64,000 nucleotides of DNA, taken from assembly GCA_038893495.1 (NCBI GenBank), contig JAWARJ010000001.1, positions 1,539,824 to 1,603,823 of the forward strand, given 5' to 3'. This document shows positions 4,457-63,010 of the stretch, piece after piece. Numbering within the stretch: position 1 is the stretch's first letter; each line of letters opens with the position of its first letter. Source of the stretch: Thermoproteus sp. GTDB taxonomy: Archaea; Thermoproteota; Thermoprotei; Thermoproteales; Thermoproteaceae. The notes under the pieces were generated by a model. The model saw only the letters and a program-made list of their open reading frames with translations, did no database searches and was not told the origin of the DNA. The translations under genes were made by a program, and so were the position numbers.

Positions 4457-4669
4457 AAAGGGGGCGCCGCATACCCCCGCTTCTGTTAGGGTATCGATCT
4501 GACCCCCTACCCGGGCCTCGCCGCGGCCTCATCGGCCCTGCTTGGGGGCCGCGCCCCCGGCTGGTTTTTACCCCCGCCTTTCGGCGGCCCGCCGGGAGCC
4601 TCCGCGGGCGGTGCGGGAGGTTCCAGAGGGCGGCCGTCTCCGAGCCGCCCCCGTCCCCTCGGCGCCCCC
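4457..4669 (-). ncRNA. rnpB: RNase P RNA, reduced (type T-like) form
   Basis: Read on the minus strand, the ends pair perfectly as P1: GGGGGCGCCG (4669-4660) with CGGCGCCCCC (4469-4460), followed by a short T run (4459-4457) as terminator. The universal core is present: CR-I as GGAACCUCCCGC (4624-4613) and CR-V as ACAGAAGCGGGGGUAU (about 4486-4471). They form helix P4 with the diagnostic bulged U (ACC-U-CCCGC with GCGGGGGU). A P3 hairpin (GGGGGCGGC to GCCGCCCUC) lies between P1 and P4. Total length is about 213 nt, and only about 125 nt lie between the P4 strands, so the specificity domain is strongly reduced. This is the minimal form described from Pyrobaculum, Caldivirga and Vulcanisaeta. 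Confidence 0.93.
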
Positions 4670-19612: not shown

Positions 19613-20194
19613 TCATGCCGTTTTCAACTTCCAGCTGTGTCTTATACACTCGGGCGCTATTCTCCCCGACCTCAATGCGGATATCGTCTTGGTGTCCGAC
19701 GGATATCCCGACCCGAAGTCGCCCATCTCGGCCCTGAGTAGATCTATCAATCTGTCCCTCACGACCTTGGCGATTATGCTGGCGGCGGCCACCGAGGGCA
19801 TACGCTCGGCCTTATTCATGGCTACTACGTTCCGCCCCGACGCGGCCCTTAGGGCGGCGCCAAAACGCTCCGGCCTGGGGTCGGGGCTGTCTACGTAATA
19901 CAGCTCGGCGTCGCAGAGGCCTATCAACTGCGCGGCTACCTCCAGCTCCAGCTGGTTGAGTTCCCGACGGCGCACCCTCTGGTCGATTATATATGGCTCT
20001 ATTACTACATAGTTTATACATTCAGCAACGGCTAGTATATCTACATACAGCCTCTCGCGCCTACTACGAGATAGGGCCTTTGAGTCCCTCACTCCAATCC
20101 TCTTGAGCTTCTCCTCGTCGCCCGCCACTATGGCTACGACCATTGGGCCCACCACAGGGCCCCGCCCCGCCTCATCCACGCCGGCGATAATCAC
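19613..20194 (-). CDS. rnhB: Ribonuclease HII
   Basis: 193 residues starting with GTG. The motif IAGVDEAGRGPVVGPMVVA (residues 3-21) contains Asp7 and Glu8 of the catalytic set; Asp in YYVDSPDPRPERF and Asp in AKVVRDRLI complete it. It cleaves the RNA strand in RNA-DNA hybrids and at single ribonucleotides. The start is only 25 bases from the divergent zinc-finger gene, with interlocked TATA boxes. It lies upstream of uS5 on the same strand with a 33-base gap. Confidence 0.93.
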   Translation of the reverse strand: MIIAGVDEAGRGPVVGPMVVAIVAGDEEKLKRIGVRDSKALSRSRRERLYVDILAVAECINYVVIEPYIIDQRVRRRELNQLELEVAAQLIGLCDAELYYVDSPDPRPERFGAALRAASGRNVVAMNKAERMPSVAAASIIAKVVRDRLIDLLRAEMGDFGSGYPSDTKTISALRSGRIAPECIRHSWKLKTA

Positions 20195-20221
20195 ATAAAG
20201 CCGTCAGTCCAGAGATATATG
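20192..20221. promoter_or_regulatory. Interlocked divergent promoters of rnhB and a zinc-finger gene
   Basis: The plus-strand TATA-like CACATAAAG (20192-20200) overlaps the minus-strand rnhB start codon (20194-20192) and is about 22 bases before the ATG at 20219. The minus-strand TATA, read as ATATATCTC (about 20220-20212), overlaps that ATG and is about 22 bases from the rnhB start. One TBP binding event should exclude the other. Confidence 0.6.
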
Positions 20222-20392
20222 GAAATCCCCAAGGACCTCTCGGCGTATTTACAAGTGGTAACAGACGGCGGCGTGGAGTACATAGCCTGTAGGAGATGTA
20301 ATAAGCTATTCTTTTCGGTGAAGGACGCGGCTAGACACCTCGCAGAGGTGCACGGAATCAAAATCGCGGCGCAGTTCTACGAGAGGCCTTAA
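20219..20392 (+). CDS. Single C2H2 zinc-finger protein
   Basis: 57 residues. It has C-x2-C-x12-H-x4-H (Cys24, Cys27, His40, His45) in IACRRCNKLFFSVKDAARHLAEVH, with the conserved Phe/Leu positions of a classical C2H2 finger. Single-finger proteins of this size are known in crenarchaea and their viruses and are thought to bind nucleic acid or protein. The leaderless start fits the TATA at 20192-20200. The downstream gene also carries a cysteine cluster, which is suggestive of a shared theme but no more. Confidence 0.75.
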   Translation: MEIPKDLSAYLQVVTDGGVEYIACRRCNKLFFSVKDAARHLAEVHGIKIAAQFYERP

Positions 20393-35936: not shown

Positions 35937-37175
35937 CTAGAGGAGGCTCTGCAACTTGCCGAATACTAGGCTCCAGGTGCCGAGGCCCAAGGCCTCGCCT
36001 ACAAGCAGGACGCCTAGGACTATGGAGACCGCCCCCACGATCAGCTCCAGCCGCCTGCCCCACTTGCTGAGACCCATAGACCTAACCGCGGCCTTTTTGC
36101 CCCATTTGGCCACGACCTTCAAGATGGCGTAGATCGCCGCGGCGAGACCTGCGGCGTAGGCGAGCATTATGGCGAAGCCCTCCAGGAAGTTGCCCGATAT
36201 GAGCGCCGAGACCGCCGCGAGGCCCATAAAGGGCGCTATACAGGGCGTCCACACCGCCCCGAGCGAAAGGCCCAACGCGAAGTCACCAGCGCCTCTGGCG
36301 GCCTTAGACGCCTTGGTCTGAAGGCCGGACATAGAGAGCACGAAGCGGCGCTCTAGGGAGGGCACCACCAATATCAGGCCGAGCGCCAACAGAACGAGAC
36401 CGCCGACGCCCGTCAAGGCGGCCTTGAAGCCCGACGCGGCCTGCCCCAAGGCCGATATGGCCGCGCCAAGGACGCTGAAGGATAGGGCCATGCCGCCCAA
36501 GACTCTAGCCGGACTCCGCCTAGCCGCCGTCGCGACCGCCCCCACGGTCAGTAGGGGGAGGACGCAAGGGGAGAAGACGCTGGCGGCGCCCACGGCGAAG
36601 GCCATCGGCAACGCAAATAGGGGATCGCCCCCCGCGCTGTTTGAGCCCTGCTGGGCACGTTGCGGGGCAACGGGAGGCGTGCCGGACATAGAAAGGCTCA
36701 GGAACTCCAAGAGGCCCTGCGGGGGCAGTCCGCCCAACAGGAGGCCCTTGAGGTAGAACTTGCCCCCAACGTCGTATCCCACTAATGTGGTGGGGGTCCC
36801 CACTATGGGGACCGAATAGGGGCCGTAGTACGGCTGGGAGTAGCCCGCCTGGCCGTTCTCCACCAGGAAGACCGACCCGTTGAGGTAGACCGGCACGGAG
36901 CTCACGCTGACATATGTAATGTCTATAGCCACCAAATTGTATCGAGACAGGACGGAGGCCACCGTGGAGTTAGTGAAGACTTGAGATATCATGTATTCGC
37001 AGGCCGGACAGCCCTCTTCGTGTATGAAGAGGAACACGGGGCCTTGGTGTGAAGCCAAATAGGCGTTGAGGTCCTGTAGGCTCGACGCCTCGTAGAAGTT
37101 CAGCCCTCCCAACTGCGTCATCGAGCCGGCCAGCGCCAAGGCTGAGAACAACAACGCGAACACTATTGACCGCAT
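35937..37175 (-). CDS. CcdA/DsbD-type thiol transporter with N-terminal thioredoxin domain
   Basis: 412 residues. A signal peptide (SIVFALLFSALALAG, residues 3-17) is followed by an extracytoplasmic thioredoxin-like domain with CPAC (EEGCPACEYMISQVF, about residue 55). Then six helices of the CcdA family start near residue 190, with the conserved FSPCVLPLLTVGA and LGAVWTPCIAPFMGLAA elements whose cysteines relay electrons. Such proteins carry reducing equivalents from the cytosol to the outside, here to their own thioredoxin domain. Starts 33 bases from the divergent HEPN gene. The domain order is the reverse of bacterial DsbD, which has its thioredoxin last. Confidence 0.9.
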   Translation of the reverse strand: MRSIVFALLFSALALAGSMTQLGGLNFYEASSLQDLNAYLASHQGPVFLFIHEEGCPACEYMISQVFTNSTVASVLSRYNLVAIDITYVSVSSVPVYLNGSVFLVENGQAGYSQPYYGPYSVPIVGTPTTLVGYDVGGKFYLKGLLLGGLPPQGLLEFLSLSMSGTPPVAPQRAQQGSNSAGGDPLFALPMAFAVGAASVFSPCVLPLLTVGAVATAARRSPARVLGGMALSFSVLGAAISALGQAASGFKAALTGVGGLVLLALGLILVVPSLERRFVLSMSGLQTKASKAARGAGDFALGLSLGAVWTPCIAPFMGLAAVSALISGNFLEGFAIMLAYAAGLAAAIYAILKVVAKWGKKAAVRSMGLSKWGRRLELIVGAVSIVLGVLLVGEALGLGTWSLVFGKLQSLL

Positions 37176-38040: not shown

Positions 38041-38158
38041 CGGCCCGTAGCTCAGCGGTGAGAGCGCCCGGCTGTAGACAGCCCCTGGGGGGACAGCAAC
38101 GGCCCATACCCCCAGGACCTATAACGGGCGGTCCCGGGTTCGAATCCCGGCGGGCCGA
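38041..38158 (+). tRNA. tRNA-Tyr (GTA) with intron
   Basis: Acceptor CGGCCCG (38041-38047) pairs with CGGGCCG (38151-38157); A73 follows. The C1-G72 pair is characteristic of archaeal tRNA-Tyr. D-stem GCTC/GAGC, anticodon loop CTGTAGA with GTA at 38074-38076, T-arm CCGGG-TTCGAAT-CCCGG. About 45 extra bases interrupt the anticodon arm. The best fit for a complete anticodon stem (CCCGG with CCGGG) needs C39 from the left exon and C40 from the right, so the intron would be about 38080-38124 at position 39/40. With a canonical 37/38 cut a G-A mismatch would remain. The intron has a strong hairpin (CCTGGGGG with CCCCCAGG). Confidence 0.9.
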
Positions 38159-44546: not shown

Positions 44547-44606
44547 ATATTCAGCACTTCGCCGTAATCCTCACGGAGGCGGAAGCGCCCTTGATTCATC
44601 ACACTA
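44547..44606 (-). ncRNA. C/D box sRNA, divergent from the next guide RNA
   Basis: Minus strand: C GTGATGA (44602-44596), 12-nt guide ATCAAGGGCGCT, D' TCCG (weak), 5-nt spacer, C' GTGAGGA (44574-44568), 13-nt guide TTACGGCGAAGTG, D CTGA (44554-44551). A TATA (CATATATTTG, about 44633-44624) is 26 bases upstream of the C box. D guide target would be CACUUCGCCGUAA with methylation predicted at the fifth position from D. The D' box is degenerate, so only the D guide may be active. Confidence 0.68.
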
Positions 44607-44635
44607 TTTAACTACTCGCCTCAAATATATGAAGG
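44602..44635. promoter_or_regulatory. Interlocked promoters of two head-to-head C/D sRNA genes
   Basis: The plus-strand TATA ACTATTTAAC (44604-44613) is about 26 bases before the plus C box (44635) and begins at the minus-strand RNA start. The minus-strand TATA (CATATATTTG, 44633-44624) is about 26 bases before the minus C box (44602) and covers the plus-strand RNA start. The starts are about 25 bp apart. Confidence 0.6.
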
Positions 44636-44688
44636 TGATGACTGCGGGATGTGCGGAGCGGTGATGTGCTACTACCGGCTCTGAGTTG
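44631..44688 (+). ncRNA. C/D box sRNA
   Basis: Full canonical layout: C GTGATGA (44635-44641), 12-nt guide CTGCGGGATGTG, D' CGGA (44654-44657), 3-nt spacer, C' GTGATGT (44661-44667), 13-nt guide GCTACTACCGGCT, D CTGA (44681-44684). A TATA box at 44604-44613 supports independent transcription. The D guide would pair with AGCCGGUAGUAGC; the GUAGC part resembles the conserved 23S rRNA segment that reads GUAGCGGCGAGCG. That assignment is a hypothesis. This is the best guide RNA of the window. Confidence 0.85.
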
Positions 44689-60611: not shown

Positions 60612-61010
60612 CTACAACGCCGCGAGGGCCCTCCTCAAGGTCTCTTCTAGCCTTTTGACAGCCTCGGCGAGCTCTAGAGTCCTCTCTTCGAGTCTTCTCG
60701 TCGCTTCGAGCTGTTCTCTCCTGGCGGCTTCGGCCTCTTCGATTATGGCCTGCCTTATGGCTTGTAGCGCCTCTAGCCCCCTCTCCGATGACGACTTTAA
60801 CGCGGCGATGTCTGCGGCGCTCTTCGTACAGGCTTCGGCCAGAGCCCTTACGGACGCGTTTTGTTCCTTCACCTCTAGTGCCAGGGCCTCAAGCGCCTGG
60901 GCCAACCTCTGTAAGGTCTGCGTCAACTCGCCTATCCCCAATTTGGCCCTCGCGATCTCTCTAAACTCCGCGTCTTCCTCCAAGAGCCTTATGAGCTCCC
61001 TCTTCAACAT
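60612..61010 (-). CDS. Coiled-coil protein
   Basis: 132 residues, from MLKRELIRLLEEDAEFREIA on almost wholly helical with heptad pattern (LTQTLQRLAQALEALALEVKEQN, then EEAEAARREQLEATRRLEERTLEL). A short N-terminal piece of this kind resembles the start of DUF3782-type archaeal proteins that carry a C-terminal nuclease-like domain, but that domain is missing here. Probably a stand-alone coiled-coil. The start is 28 bases from the divergent aldose epimerase gene, with interlocked TATA boxes. Confidence 0.6.
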   Translation of the reverse strand: MLKRELIRLLEEDAEFREIARAKLGIGELTQTLQRLAQALEALALEVKEQNASVRALAEACTKSAADIAALKSSSERGLEALQAIRQAIIEEAEAARREQLEATRRLEERTLELAEAVKRLEETLRRALAAL

Positions 61011-61038
61011 ATAAAATACGTACGCTCCACCTATTTAG
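61008..61038. promoter_or_regulatory. Interlocked divergent promoters of the coiled-coil and epimerase genes
   Basis: Plus-strand TATA-like CATATAAAAT (61008-61017) overlaps the minus-strand ATG (61010-61008) and is about 26 bases before the epimerase GTG at 61038. The minus-strand TATA (read as CTAAATAGG, about 61037-61029) overlaps that GTG and is about 24 bases before the coiled-coil start. The starts are 28 bp apart. Confidence 0.6.
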
Positions 61039-61856
61039 TGATAACGCTGAGAGCGGGCTCCAGCGAGGCGGTCCTACACGCGCGGGGCGCCTACCTTTCG
61101 GCGCTCAGGCGCGATGGCGTCGACGTAATCCTGCCGGGATCGCCAGATAGGCAGACCCGCGGCGGCATGGCCATATTGATGCCTTTCGCCAATAGGGTAA
61201 GGGGAGGCGTCTACGAGATAGACGGCGTGACCTACAGCCTGCCCAGAAACACAGAGGGCCACGCCATACACGGCCTCGTCATGGATAAGGAGTGGGCCCT
61301 CGAGCGTCTAGACGAGAGGTCGGCCACCTTCACGTTGGAGCTGTCTCACCCCGGCTACCCATCCCGGCTCCTATGTAGGGCTTCCTACCGGCTCTCAGAC
61401 GGCCTCCTCGAGGTGGTCCTCGAGGCCACCAACTTAGGGCCCAGGAGGGCGCCCCTAGTGGCCGGCGCCCATCCCTACTTCGTGGTGGAGGAGCCTTGGA
61501 CCATAAAGGCCAAGAGACCCATGAGGTGCGTCGCGGTCGGCAAAATACCTACCGGGGAGCTCGTGCTGCATGAGTTCGGAGTGGGGGGAGATTACGACGA
61601 CTGCTTCCTTGTCGTCGAGGACCCAATATTCTTAGAGTCGCCTCATTCTACAATAAAACTCGAGAGGCGCGACATGCCGTATATACAGGTCTATACTGGA
61701 GTGGCCGGCGCTGTCGCGTTAGAGCCCATGTCGGGCGCGCCCGACGCCTATCACAATGGGCTGGGGCTCAAGATACTGGCCCCCGGCGAGACGGCTAGGT
61801 TTTGGTTCTCAATATCTTTTCAGTTGGGTAGGGGTCCGCTCAAGAGGTCGCCTTAG
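61038..61856 (+). CDS. galM: Aldose 1-epimerase
   Basis: 272 residues from a GTG. The aldose epimerase regions are clear: NRVRGGVYEIDG, HAIHGLVMDKEWALE (His base region), GAHPYFVVEEPW with the second His, and ALEPMSGAPDAYHNGLG with the catalytic Glu. It interconverts alpha and beta anomers of glucose or galactose. It fits with the glucan-degrading genes elsewhere in the window. Shares an interlocked promoter with the coiled-coil gene on the other strand. Confidence 0.88.
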   Translation: MITLRAGSSEAVLHARGAYLSALRRDGVDVILPGSPDRQTRGGMAILMPFANRVRGGVYEIDGVTYSLPRNTEGHAIHGLVMDKEWALERLDERSATFTLELSHPGYPSRLLCRASYRLSDGLLEVVLEATNLGPRRAPLVAGAHPYFVVEEPWTIKAKRPMRCVAVGKIPTGELVLHEFGVGGDYDDCFLVVEDPIFLESPHSTIKLERRDMPYIQVYTGVAGAVALEPMSGAPDAYHNGLGLKILAPGETARFWFSISFQLGRGPLKRSP

Positions 61857-61893: not shown

Positions 61894-61951
61894 TTAATGT
61901 GATGAGGATCACCGCTTCCTACTCGTGACGACGGTATGCAGCGCTGATCAC
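61894..61951 (+). ncRNA. C/D box sRNA
   Basis: Regular layout: C GTGATGA (61899-61905), 12-nt guide GGATCACCGCTT, D' CCTA (61918-61921), 3-nt spacer, C' GTGACGA (61925-61931), 12-nt guide CGGTATGCAGCG, D CTGA (61944-61947). The TATA CTATATAAC (61871-61879) is about 25 bases upstream. The D guide pairs with CGCUGCAUACCG. Its end lies at the stop of the convergent UPF0148 gene. Targets were not identified. Confidence 0.85.
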
Positions 61952-62307
61952 TTCCCCTCGCCCAATTTGCTCAACTTCTCGTAGATGTCCAAGAGCATAG
62001 AGAGCGCTCTAAGCCTTTCATATAGCTCCTCTCCGTCGAGGCCCCCCAGCTCTCTCCCCAAGGCTAATATCTTGTTGAAGACCGCCTGCCTCACCTCCTT
62101 GAGGGTATAGAGCTCCGACACCCTCTGGGCCTCCTCTTCAGACTTGACGACGACGACCGTCTTCTCGCAGTTGGCGCAATAATATTCGCCCGTCTTTAAC
62201 CTAACTAGGACCGTGCCGCATACGGGGCAGGTGTATGAGGTAAGCGCGGCGCCAGCTCTCACCAGCTCTGCTATCTTCTTGACCACTAAGTCCCTTTTTG
62301 TGCTCAT
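61948..62307 (-). CDS. UPF0148 / autoantigen p27-type zinc-finger protein
   Basis: 119 residues from the ATG at 62307; an upstream frame is unlike coding sequence. Zinc site C-x2-C...C-x2-C in YTCPVCGTVLVRLKTGEYYCANCEKTVVV (about residues 25-50), the hallmark of the Sjogren/scleroderma autoantigen 1 (UPF0148) family, with a helical C terminus. The function is unknown. It starts 26 bases from the divergent kinase gene with interlocked TATA boxes. Confidence 0.8.
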   Translation of the reverse strand: MSTKRDLVVKKIAELVRAGAALTSYTCPVCGTVLVRLKTGEYYCANCEKTVVVVKSEEEAQRVSELYTLKEVRQAVFNKILALGRELGGLDGEELYERLRALSMLLDIYEKLSKLGEGK

Positions 62308-62335
62308 ATAGGGGCTGTGGTCCTGTATATATATG
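62304..62335. promoter_or_regulatory. Interlocked divergent promoters of UPF0148 and kinase genes
   Basis: Plus-strand TATA-like TCATATAG (62304-62311) overlaps the UPF0148 ATG (62307-62305) and is about 26 bases before the kinase ATG at 62333. The minus-strand TATA (read as ATATATATAC, about 62334-62325) overlaps the kinase ATG and is about 22 bases before the UPF0148 start. The start codons are 26 bp apart. Confidence 0.6.
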
Positions 62336-63010
62336 CACTTAAGGGTCGCGTCGGTTCTCGCCATAGGCGGGGACCTAGCGCACTTGTCGAAAATCTCGGC
62401 GCAACTGGCCCTGTTGGGCCTCGACGTAGAGCTCGGCGGCGGGACCATATGGGGCGACATGCGCATTTTGGGCAAGGGCACTAACGGCATCGTGGTGTTC
62501 TGTCGGTCTAAATACGGCGATTTATATGCCTGTAAGATAAGGCGGGGGGACTCCCAAAGGCCCCATCTGCTGGACGAAGCCAGATATCTACTTGCGGCCA
62601 ATAGCGTCGGGGTGGGGCCGAGGCTTTACGCCTACACGAGAGACATATTGGTGATGGAATACGTCGAGGGGGCACCTCTAGAGCGGTGGTGGAGGGGGGC
62701 GGCTCCCCCGGAGAGGAGGAGCCTTGCAGCGGACCTATTGAGGCAGGCGCGCGCCCTCGACAAAATAGGCCTTTCCCACGGGGAGCTCTCCAGGCTCGGC
62801 GAACACGTGTTGGTGTCTAGAGGGGGCAAGGCCGTCATTTTGGACTTCGAGTCGGCCCGTTTCGGGAAGGCACGCAACGTGACGCAGGTGGCCAACATGT
62901 TGAGGCAGTTGGGCCTCTCGCCACCTCTAGAGCCCCTTAGGAGGTACTCCGAGAGACAGGACGACGAGTCCTTCAACGAGGTGTTGTCGTCACTTTTGGG
63001 CCAGTTCTAG
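62333..63010 (+). CDS. COG2112-type atypical protein kinase
   Basis: 225 residues. Kinase features: GKGTNGIV (48-55), Lys68 in ACKIRRG, Glu82 in LLDEARYL, hinge VMEYVEG, and the DFG-like metal site ILDFESA (Asp171). The catalytic loop reads SHGELSRLGEHVLV, so the canonical HxD or HGD Asp is Glu151. This HGELSR-x-G-x-H pattern is characteristic of the archaeal COG2112 family, so the change is family-wide. It should phosphorylate proteins or be a pseudokinase-like regulator. It overlaps the convergent PUA gene by 21 bases. Confidence 0.83.
   Translation: MHLRVASVLAIGGDLAHLSKISAQLALLGLDVELGGGTIWGDMRILGKGTNGIVVFCRSKYGDLYACKIRRGDSQRPHLLDEARYLLAANSVGVGPRLYAYTRDILVMEYVEGAPLERWWRGAAPPERRSLAADLLRQARALDKIGLSHGELSRLGEHVLVSRGGKAVILDFESARFGKARNVTQVANMLRQLGLSPPLEPLRRYSERQDDESFNEVLSSLLGQF

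What the first reader, a model, noticed from the sequence alone, without database searches (positions are those of the whole stretch)
20192..20221. Interlocked divergent promoters of RNase HII and a zinc-finger gene
Start codons lie 25 bp apart, with each TATA box on the other gene's start. One TBP bound should exclude the other gene, a switch made of two promoters without any regulator. The same layout recurs at 61010/61038, 62307/62333 and the C/D sRNA pair near 44606/44631, and more loosely at 37175/37208. Recurrence in one 64-kb window suggests a general architecture of compact leaderless genomes.
Basis: partly seen in the sequence, partly recalled or inferred. Interest (0 to 1): 0.7.

Follow-up and report, generated by a model that had tools for sequence, protein, structure and literature searches.

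The report
Two promoters packed into 25 bases
In this heat-loving archaeon a few back-to-back gene pairs are packed so tightly that each gene's TATA box lies on the other gene's first codon; the layout is real and conserved between species, but it looks like the limit of genome compaction and there is no evidence that it is a genetic switch.

Summary
The layout is real. RNase HII (GTG 20194, -) and a conserved 57-aa C2H2-like zinc-finger protein (ATG 20219, +) start 25 bp apart. Each has a TATA box in the register used genome-wide (centre about -23.5 from the start codon), lying on the other's start codon. The pairs at 61010/61038 and 62307/62333 do the same. Across up to six genus members their spacings stay 24-30 bp. 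Both TATA boxes are present in 13 of 15 orthologous junctions, against a mean of 1.3 with shuffled spacers.

The interpretation mostly fails. In 2.86 Mb sampled from five related genomes, 24-34 bp spacing is not enriched (22 against about 20 expected). It is the lower edge of the distribution: spacing below 24 bp is nearly absent. The preferred register is 40-49 bp, where one TATA can serve both genes (54 against 24-31), a kind already shown in Pyrococcus. Interlocked TATA boxes are weaker than others. Steric exclusion would apply equally at wider spacings, and nothing here shows a switch.

Best reading: tightest workable packing of two independent leaderless core promoters. An indel between the boxes shifts both TATA-to-start distances at once, which would hold the spacing fixed without any regulatory function.

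The parts
19613..20194 (-). RNase HII gene, start GTG 20194
   Evidence: Pfam PF01351 E 4e-38; orthologs in 19 of 19 family genomes; in-frame stop four codons upstream of the GTG
20219..20392 (+). 57-aa small protein with a C2H2-type zinc-finger pattern (CxxC..HxxxxH), start ATG 20219
   Evidence: divergent neighbour of RNase HII in all 6 genus genomes, 66-81% identical; no Pfam family above cut-off
20214..20226 (-). BRE+TATA 13-mer of RNase HII (ATTTCCATATATC), covering the ATG of the ZF gene
   Evidence: motif score 4.3; similar box at this place in 5 of 6 genus genomes
20187..20199 (+). BRE+TATA 13-mer of the ZF gene (ATAATCACATAAA), covering the GTG of RNase HII
   Evidence: motif score 3.1; present in 6 of 6 genus genomes
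60612..61010 (-). coiled-coil-like protein gene, start ATG 61010; second interlocked pair
   Evidence: orthologs adjacent to the epimerase in G002, G005 and G001
61038..61856 (+). aldose 1-epimerase gene, start GTG 61038
   Evidence: PF01263 E 2e-38; spacing 28, 26, 27, 27 in four genomes
61005..61017 (+). BRE+TATA 13-mer of the epimerase (CAACATATAAAAT), over the other gene's ATG
   Evidence: score 7.7
61031..61043 (-). BRE+TATA 13-mer of the coiled-coil gene (TATCACTAAATAG), over the epimerase GTG
   Evidence: score 2.2
61948..62307 (-). autoantigen-p27-type zinc-ribbon protein gene, start ATG 62307; third interlocked pair
   Evidence: PF06677 E 9e-14
62333..63010 (+). RIO-like kinase gene, start ATG 62333
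   Evidence: PF01163 E 5e-6; spacing 26, 24, 24, 29, 26 in five genomes
62298..62310 (+). BRE+TATA 13-mer of the kinase gene (TTGTGCTCATATA), over the p27-type gene's ATG
   Evidence: weak in this genome (score 0.0), but the CATATA/CATAC box recurs in the orthologs
62328..62340 (-). BRE+TATA 13-mer of the p27-type gene (AAGTGCATATATA), over the kinase ATG
   Evidence: score 6.5
44549..44606 (-). C/D box sRNA (box C 44602->44596, box D 44554->44551); ends approximate
   Evidence: boxes read from the sequence; conserved in the genus
44631..44686 (+). C/D box sRNA (box C 44635-44641, box D 44681-44684); ends approximate
   Evidence: boxes read from the sequence; conserved in the genus, but promoter layout varies

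Best explanation
These are two independent, complete but weakened core promoters of leaderless genes, packed at the smallest spacing that still leaves both usable. In this family TATA sits at -27 to -20 from the start codon. When two starts are 24-30 bp apart, each TATA falls just outside, or on the edge of, the other ORF: the start codon ATG supplies the edge of a CATATA box on the opposite strand, and only the BRE falls in the neighbour's first codons. Any closer and TATA would have to be written in the neighbour's codons. Both TATA-to-start distances run through the same roughly 17 bp, so an indel there spoils both promoters at once, which would keep the spacing fixed over evolution without any regulatory role. 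Only one preinitiation complex can plausibly sit there at a time, but at ordinary low occupancy this should cost little. Shown: positions, motif register, conservation, lower edge at 24 bp, weaker motifs. Inferred: leaderless initiation at these genes, indel locking, weak competition.
For: TATA/BRE register learned from hundreds of starts, including starts called without using TATA. Sharp lower edge: 3 pairs at 0-23 bp against 13-28 expected, P<=0.0008. 24-34 bp not enriched. Interlocked TATAs (24-30 bp) weaker: median score 3.1 against 7.2 at 65-99 bp, Mann-Whitney p 3e-9, with the A+T rise at the BRE lost. AT peaks at both -26..-21 and -8..-1 in the 24-30 bp class. Spacing near-constant in orthologs: 25,25,25,30,28,27; 26,24,24,29,26; 28,26,27,27; median ortholog difference 2 bp against 9.5-20 bp for wider classes. 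Caller does not itself create spacing peaks.
Against: The gene finder is home-made and start calls are noisy. The ortholog-spacing comparison mixes curated short pairs with automatic wider ones. The PWM includes BRE positions, so part of the lower score is coding sequence replacing the BRE. No TSS data for this organism were available, so leaderless initiation at these particular genes is inferred from motif position. A distinct small mode near 28 bp is visible in the smoothed density and could reflect a mild preference rather than an edge.
Confidence: 0.75

Rival explanations
1. A regulator-free switch: the two preinitiation complexes exclude each other, so RNase HII and the ZF gene are expressed alternately and the layout is selected for that.
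For: Geometry makes simultaneous occupancy implausible. Both TATAs are conserved in most genus members although the spacers have diverged (13 of 15 junctions).
Against: No enrichment of the spacing class. Exclusion would hold for every divergent pair closer than two promoter footprints, including the commoner 40-49 bp class, so 25 bp is not special. The TATA boxes are weak, which works against competition. At E. coli bidirectional promoters basal activity was too low for competition unless one direction was strongly activated (PMC12825309). Gene pairs show no obvious functional antagonism. The sRNA pair changed layout between species.
Confidence: 0.08
2. Coupling rather than switching: mild steric competition keeps both genes low and balanced or reduces expression noise, and that is why the layout persists.
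For: In E. coli, transcription constrained by polymerase interference at bidirectional promoters lowers cell-to-cell variation (PMC12825309). Spacing conserved over the genus.
Against: Spacing conservation is equally expected from indel locking. No expression data. The same RNase HII/ZF junction drifts to 26-33 bp in the sister genus, with a less clear RNase HII TATA in several species (read).
Confidence: 0.12
3. One of the two TATA boxes is a by-product: only one gene has its promoter here, the other is transcribed from elsewhere, and AT-rich start codons mimic the second box.
For: Some interlocked junctions have one box scoring near or below zero (for example G003 RNase HII -6.0, kinase side of 62333 0.0).
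Against: Both boxes present in 13/15 orthologous junctions against a mean of 1.3 for shuffled spacers. The upstream side of each gene is the neighbour's coding sequence, so no other obvious promoter place.
Confidence: 0.05

Closest known systems
Bidirectional archaeal promoters sharing one TATA (Pyrococcus furiosus dRNA-seq, PMC6640164)
   Same: Two opposite transcripts from overlapping TBP/TFB-dependent core promoters; TATA near-symmetry; only one complex at a time.
   Different: There one TATA serves both directions and the TSSs are about 49-50 bp apart, with mostly noncoding antisense products. Here there are two separate TATAs, starts about 25 bp apart, and both products are genes. The 40-49 bp class in these genomes is the true counterpart.
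Bacterial bidirectional sigma70 promoters (PMC10268837, PMC12825309; Warman et al. 2021 known only through their citations)
   Same: Reciprocal overlap of core elements with the opposite start site and steric exclusion of polymerase.
   Different: TSS spacing usually 18 bp with one shared, near-symmetric -10 element; different factors and geometry.
gvpA/gvpD divergent promoters of Halobacterium (PMC4390858)
   Same: Two divergent archaeal promoters with overlapping control elements.
   Different: TSSs 108 bp apart and TATA-BRE elements 35 bp apart; what overlaps is the activator GvpE's binding sequences, and regulation needs GvpE and GvpD.

Membership tests
Shared-TATA bidirectional archaeal promoter | a single TATA midway between start sites about 50 bp apart | tested here: not met
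   start spacing is 25 bp and there are two distinct TATAs, one at each end
Shared-TATA bidirectional archaeal promoter | BRE on both flanks of the TATA | tested here: not met
   each TATA has coding sequence where the outer BRE should be; A+T rise at -32..-30 lost in the 24-30 bp class
Leaderless archaeal core promoter | TATA centred about 23-27 bp before the start codon, in genome-wide register | tested here: met
   both genes match the motif learned from the genome
Leaderless archaeal core promoter | primary 5' end at or next to the start codon | not testable with these tools
   no TSS data for this organism
Mutually exclusive (competitive) promoter switch | overlapping binding sites that cannot both be occupied | tested here: inconclusive
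   sequence geometry implies it; occupancy not measured
Mutually exclusive (competitive) promoter switch | activity of one direction lowers the other at native strength | not testable with these tools
   needs in vitro transcription or reporters
Mutually exclusive (competitive) promoter switch | layout favoured over comparable spacings | tested here: not met
   24-34 bp spacing 22 observed against about 20 expected
Bacterial sigma70 bidirectional promoter | start sites about 18 bp apart on a shared -10 element | tested here: not met
   25 bp, TATA/BRE-type elements

The most novel reading that the evidence does not exclude
Divergent leaderless promoters in Thermoproteaceae use a small set of discrete registers: interlocked (about 27 bp), shared TATA (about 45 bp) and back to back (about 70 bp). 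The interlocked register is a distinct conserved promoter class in which the two directions measurably compete.
Probability: 0.15. Interest if true: 0.6.

Novelty: new variant of a known kind. Interest (0 to 1): 0.4.

Why it matters
It gives a rule for how closely two archaeal core promoters can be packed: about 24 bp between start codons, with a preferred shared-TATA register at 40-49 bp. It shows that start codons and TATA boxes can be written in the same bases. The rule can help correct start-codon annotation in leaderless genomes, and the conserved pairs are clean natural substrates for testing TBP/TFB competition in vitro.

Tried and rejected
The genome-contig scan with RNase HII returned only distant organisms and did not name the genus. 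I first took the recurrence in the window (3 pairs of 13) as typical; wider sampling showed otherwise. A strict trimodal reading was considered: Silverman's test rejects at most two modes only weakly (P 0.033 with TATA-aware starts, 0.08 with TATA-blind starts) and does not reject one mode (0.31, 0.15), so it is not claimed. The possibility that the gene caller makes the peaks was tested by simulation and rejected. 37175/37208 was rejected as an interlocked pair. A two-sequence sRNA alignment used the wrong stretch and was discarded; one search replaces it, and two of its rows (G001, G003) are in the other orientation.

Full report
What is there. The window lies in a 1.995-Mb, single-contig archaeal genome. 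Genome sizes of its closest relatives (1,936,063 and 1,841,542 bp in the genus; 2,009,313 and 2,222,430 bp in the sister genus) match, from memory, Thermoproteus uzoniensis, T. tenax, Pyrobaculum calidifontis and P. aerophilum, so the organism is probably a Thermoproteus; this naming is a recollection, not a test. RNase HII (Pfam PF01351) starts with GTG at 20194 on the minus strand; an in-frame stop lies four codons upstream. A 57-aa protein with a C2H2 zinc-finger pattern starts with ATG at 20219 on the plus strand. It is the divergent neighbour of RNase HII in all six genus genomes and in most of the sister genus.

Promoter register. I wrote a gene finder (frame-specific Markov model, starts called with and without an upstream motif) and ran it on the window and on sampled stretches. 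Even with starts called from coding signal alone, sequences before the start show a TATA-like block at -27 to -20 and an A-rich block at -32 to -30, strongest in divergent genes and genes with a gap upstream. The learned 13-mer is AAAAATTTATATA at -32 to -20. Motifs at that distance from the start codon are what leaderless transcription predicts. Both genes of the focal pair match in register: 20226->20214 for RNase HII (score 4.3) and 20187-20199 for the ZF gene (3.1); about 3% of random positions in the window score above 2.

Conservation. Spacing of the RNase HII/ZF starts in six genus genomes is 25, 25, 25, 30, 28 and 27 bp (in G001 the RNase HII start is the in-frame ATG nine bases upstream of the first aligned residue). 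The p27-type zinc ribbon/RIO-like kinase pair has 26, 24, 24, 29, 26; the coiled-coil/aldose epimerase pair 28, 26, 27, 27. The middles of the spacers have diverged but the ends have not: 28 of 30 promoters score above zero and both do in 13 of 15 junctions. With shuffled spacers the means are 8.5 of 30 and 1.3 of 15, and the maxima in 300 trials 14 and 5. Some of these genomes are close relatives, so the 15 junctions are not fully independent. In the sister genus the spacing is about 26-33 bp and the RNase HII box is less clear in several species (read).

Is the spacing favoured? From five genomes (864, 800, 400, 400 and 400 kb) I obtained 499 divergent pairs in 425 groups after merging orthologs. 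Against smoothed nulls, 24-34 bp holds 22 pairs with 19.7-20.4 expected (P about 0.33-0.38); with TATA-blind starts 21 against 16.5-17.6 (P 0.15-0.23). So there is no enrichment. Spacings of 0-23 bp are depleted: 3 against 13-28 (P<=0.0008). The one strongly enriched class is 40-49 bp: 54 against 24-31 (none of 4000 draws as high), and with TATA-blind starts 32 against 19-22 (P 0.0025-0.03). 65-74 bp is moderately enriched (40 against 25-28; weaker with TATA-blind starts). A simulation with uniform true spacing gives a nearly flat called distribution, so the caller does not make these peaks. In this genome 6 of 154 pairs fall in 24-34 bp, three of them in the window (hypergeometric P 0.008, but the window was picked because of them).

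Reading the geometry. With TATA centred at about -23.5, a spacing of about 47 bp puts both genes' TATA in the same place, which explains the 40-49 bp peak and parallels the 49-50 bp TSS spacing of shared-TATA promoters in Pyrococcus furiosus (PMC6640164). At about 66 bp two BRE+TATA units fit without overlap. At 24-25 bp each TATA just clears the neighbour's second codon. This accounts for the edge at 24 bp. It also predicts a cost: interlocked boxes (24-30 bp) have median motif score 3.1 against 7.2 at 65-99 bp (p 3e-9) and lose the A+T rise at the BRE. Ortholog spacing differs by a median of 2 bp in the short class and 9.5-20 bp in wider classes, as expected if an indel between the boxes breaks both promoters; the short-class values include hand-checked pairs and the others are automatic, so the contrast is only suggestive.

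The switch claim. Two preinitiation complexes cannot plausibly occupy a 25-bp interval, but the same is true of the far commoner 40-49 bp pairs, so exclusion is not a special property of this layout. Exclusion becomes regulation only if occupancy is high. At five E. coli bidirectional promoters basal transcription was too low for competition, which appeared only when one direction was strongly activated (PMC12825309). The interlocked boxes here are weak. The genes have no evident antagonistic roles, and the sRNA pair has a different layout in two sister species (box C to box C 40-41 bp with a central TATA-like block, instead of 30-33 bp). I therefore keep the observation, reject 'general architecture', and leave 'switch' as an unsupported, testable possibility.

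Limits. No transcript data, home-made gene calls, samples rather than complete genomes, one archaeal family. Literature was limited to an open library; no paper found there describes the interlocked 25-bp layout, but subscription papers (including Warman et al. 2021) could not be read, so novelty is provisional.

Noticed in passing
window 4461-4668 (-): RNase P RNA of the truncated type (Rfam RNaseP-T, 204 bits).
   Followed up: no
window 38041-38158 (+): Rfam tRNA match spanning 118 bases that ARAGORN in bacterial mode missed; the length suggests an intron-containing tRNA gene.
   Followed up: no
sampled stretches of G000, G004, G005, G006, G007: Divergent start codons 40-49 bp apart are strongly over-represented, as expected if one near-palindromic TATA serves two leaderless protein genes; 65-74 bp is a weaker second preference.
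   Followed up: partly
window 44549-44686 and L238, L239, L240: A conserved pair of divergent C/D box sRNAs whose promoter layout differs between species: near-interlocked in two genomes, central TATA-like block in two others.
   Followed up: partly
window 20219-20392 (+): Conserved 57-aa C2H2-like zinc-finger protein without a Pfam family above cut-off, kept next to RNase HII in most of the family.
   Followed up: partly
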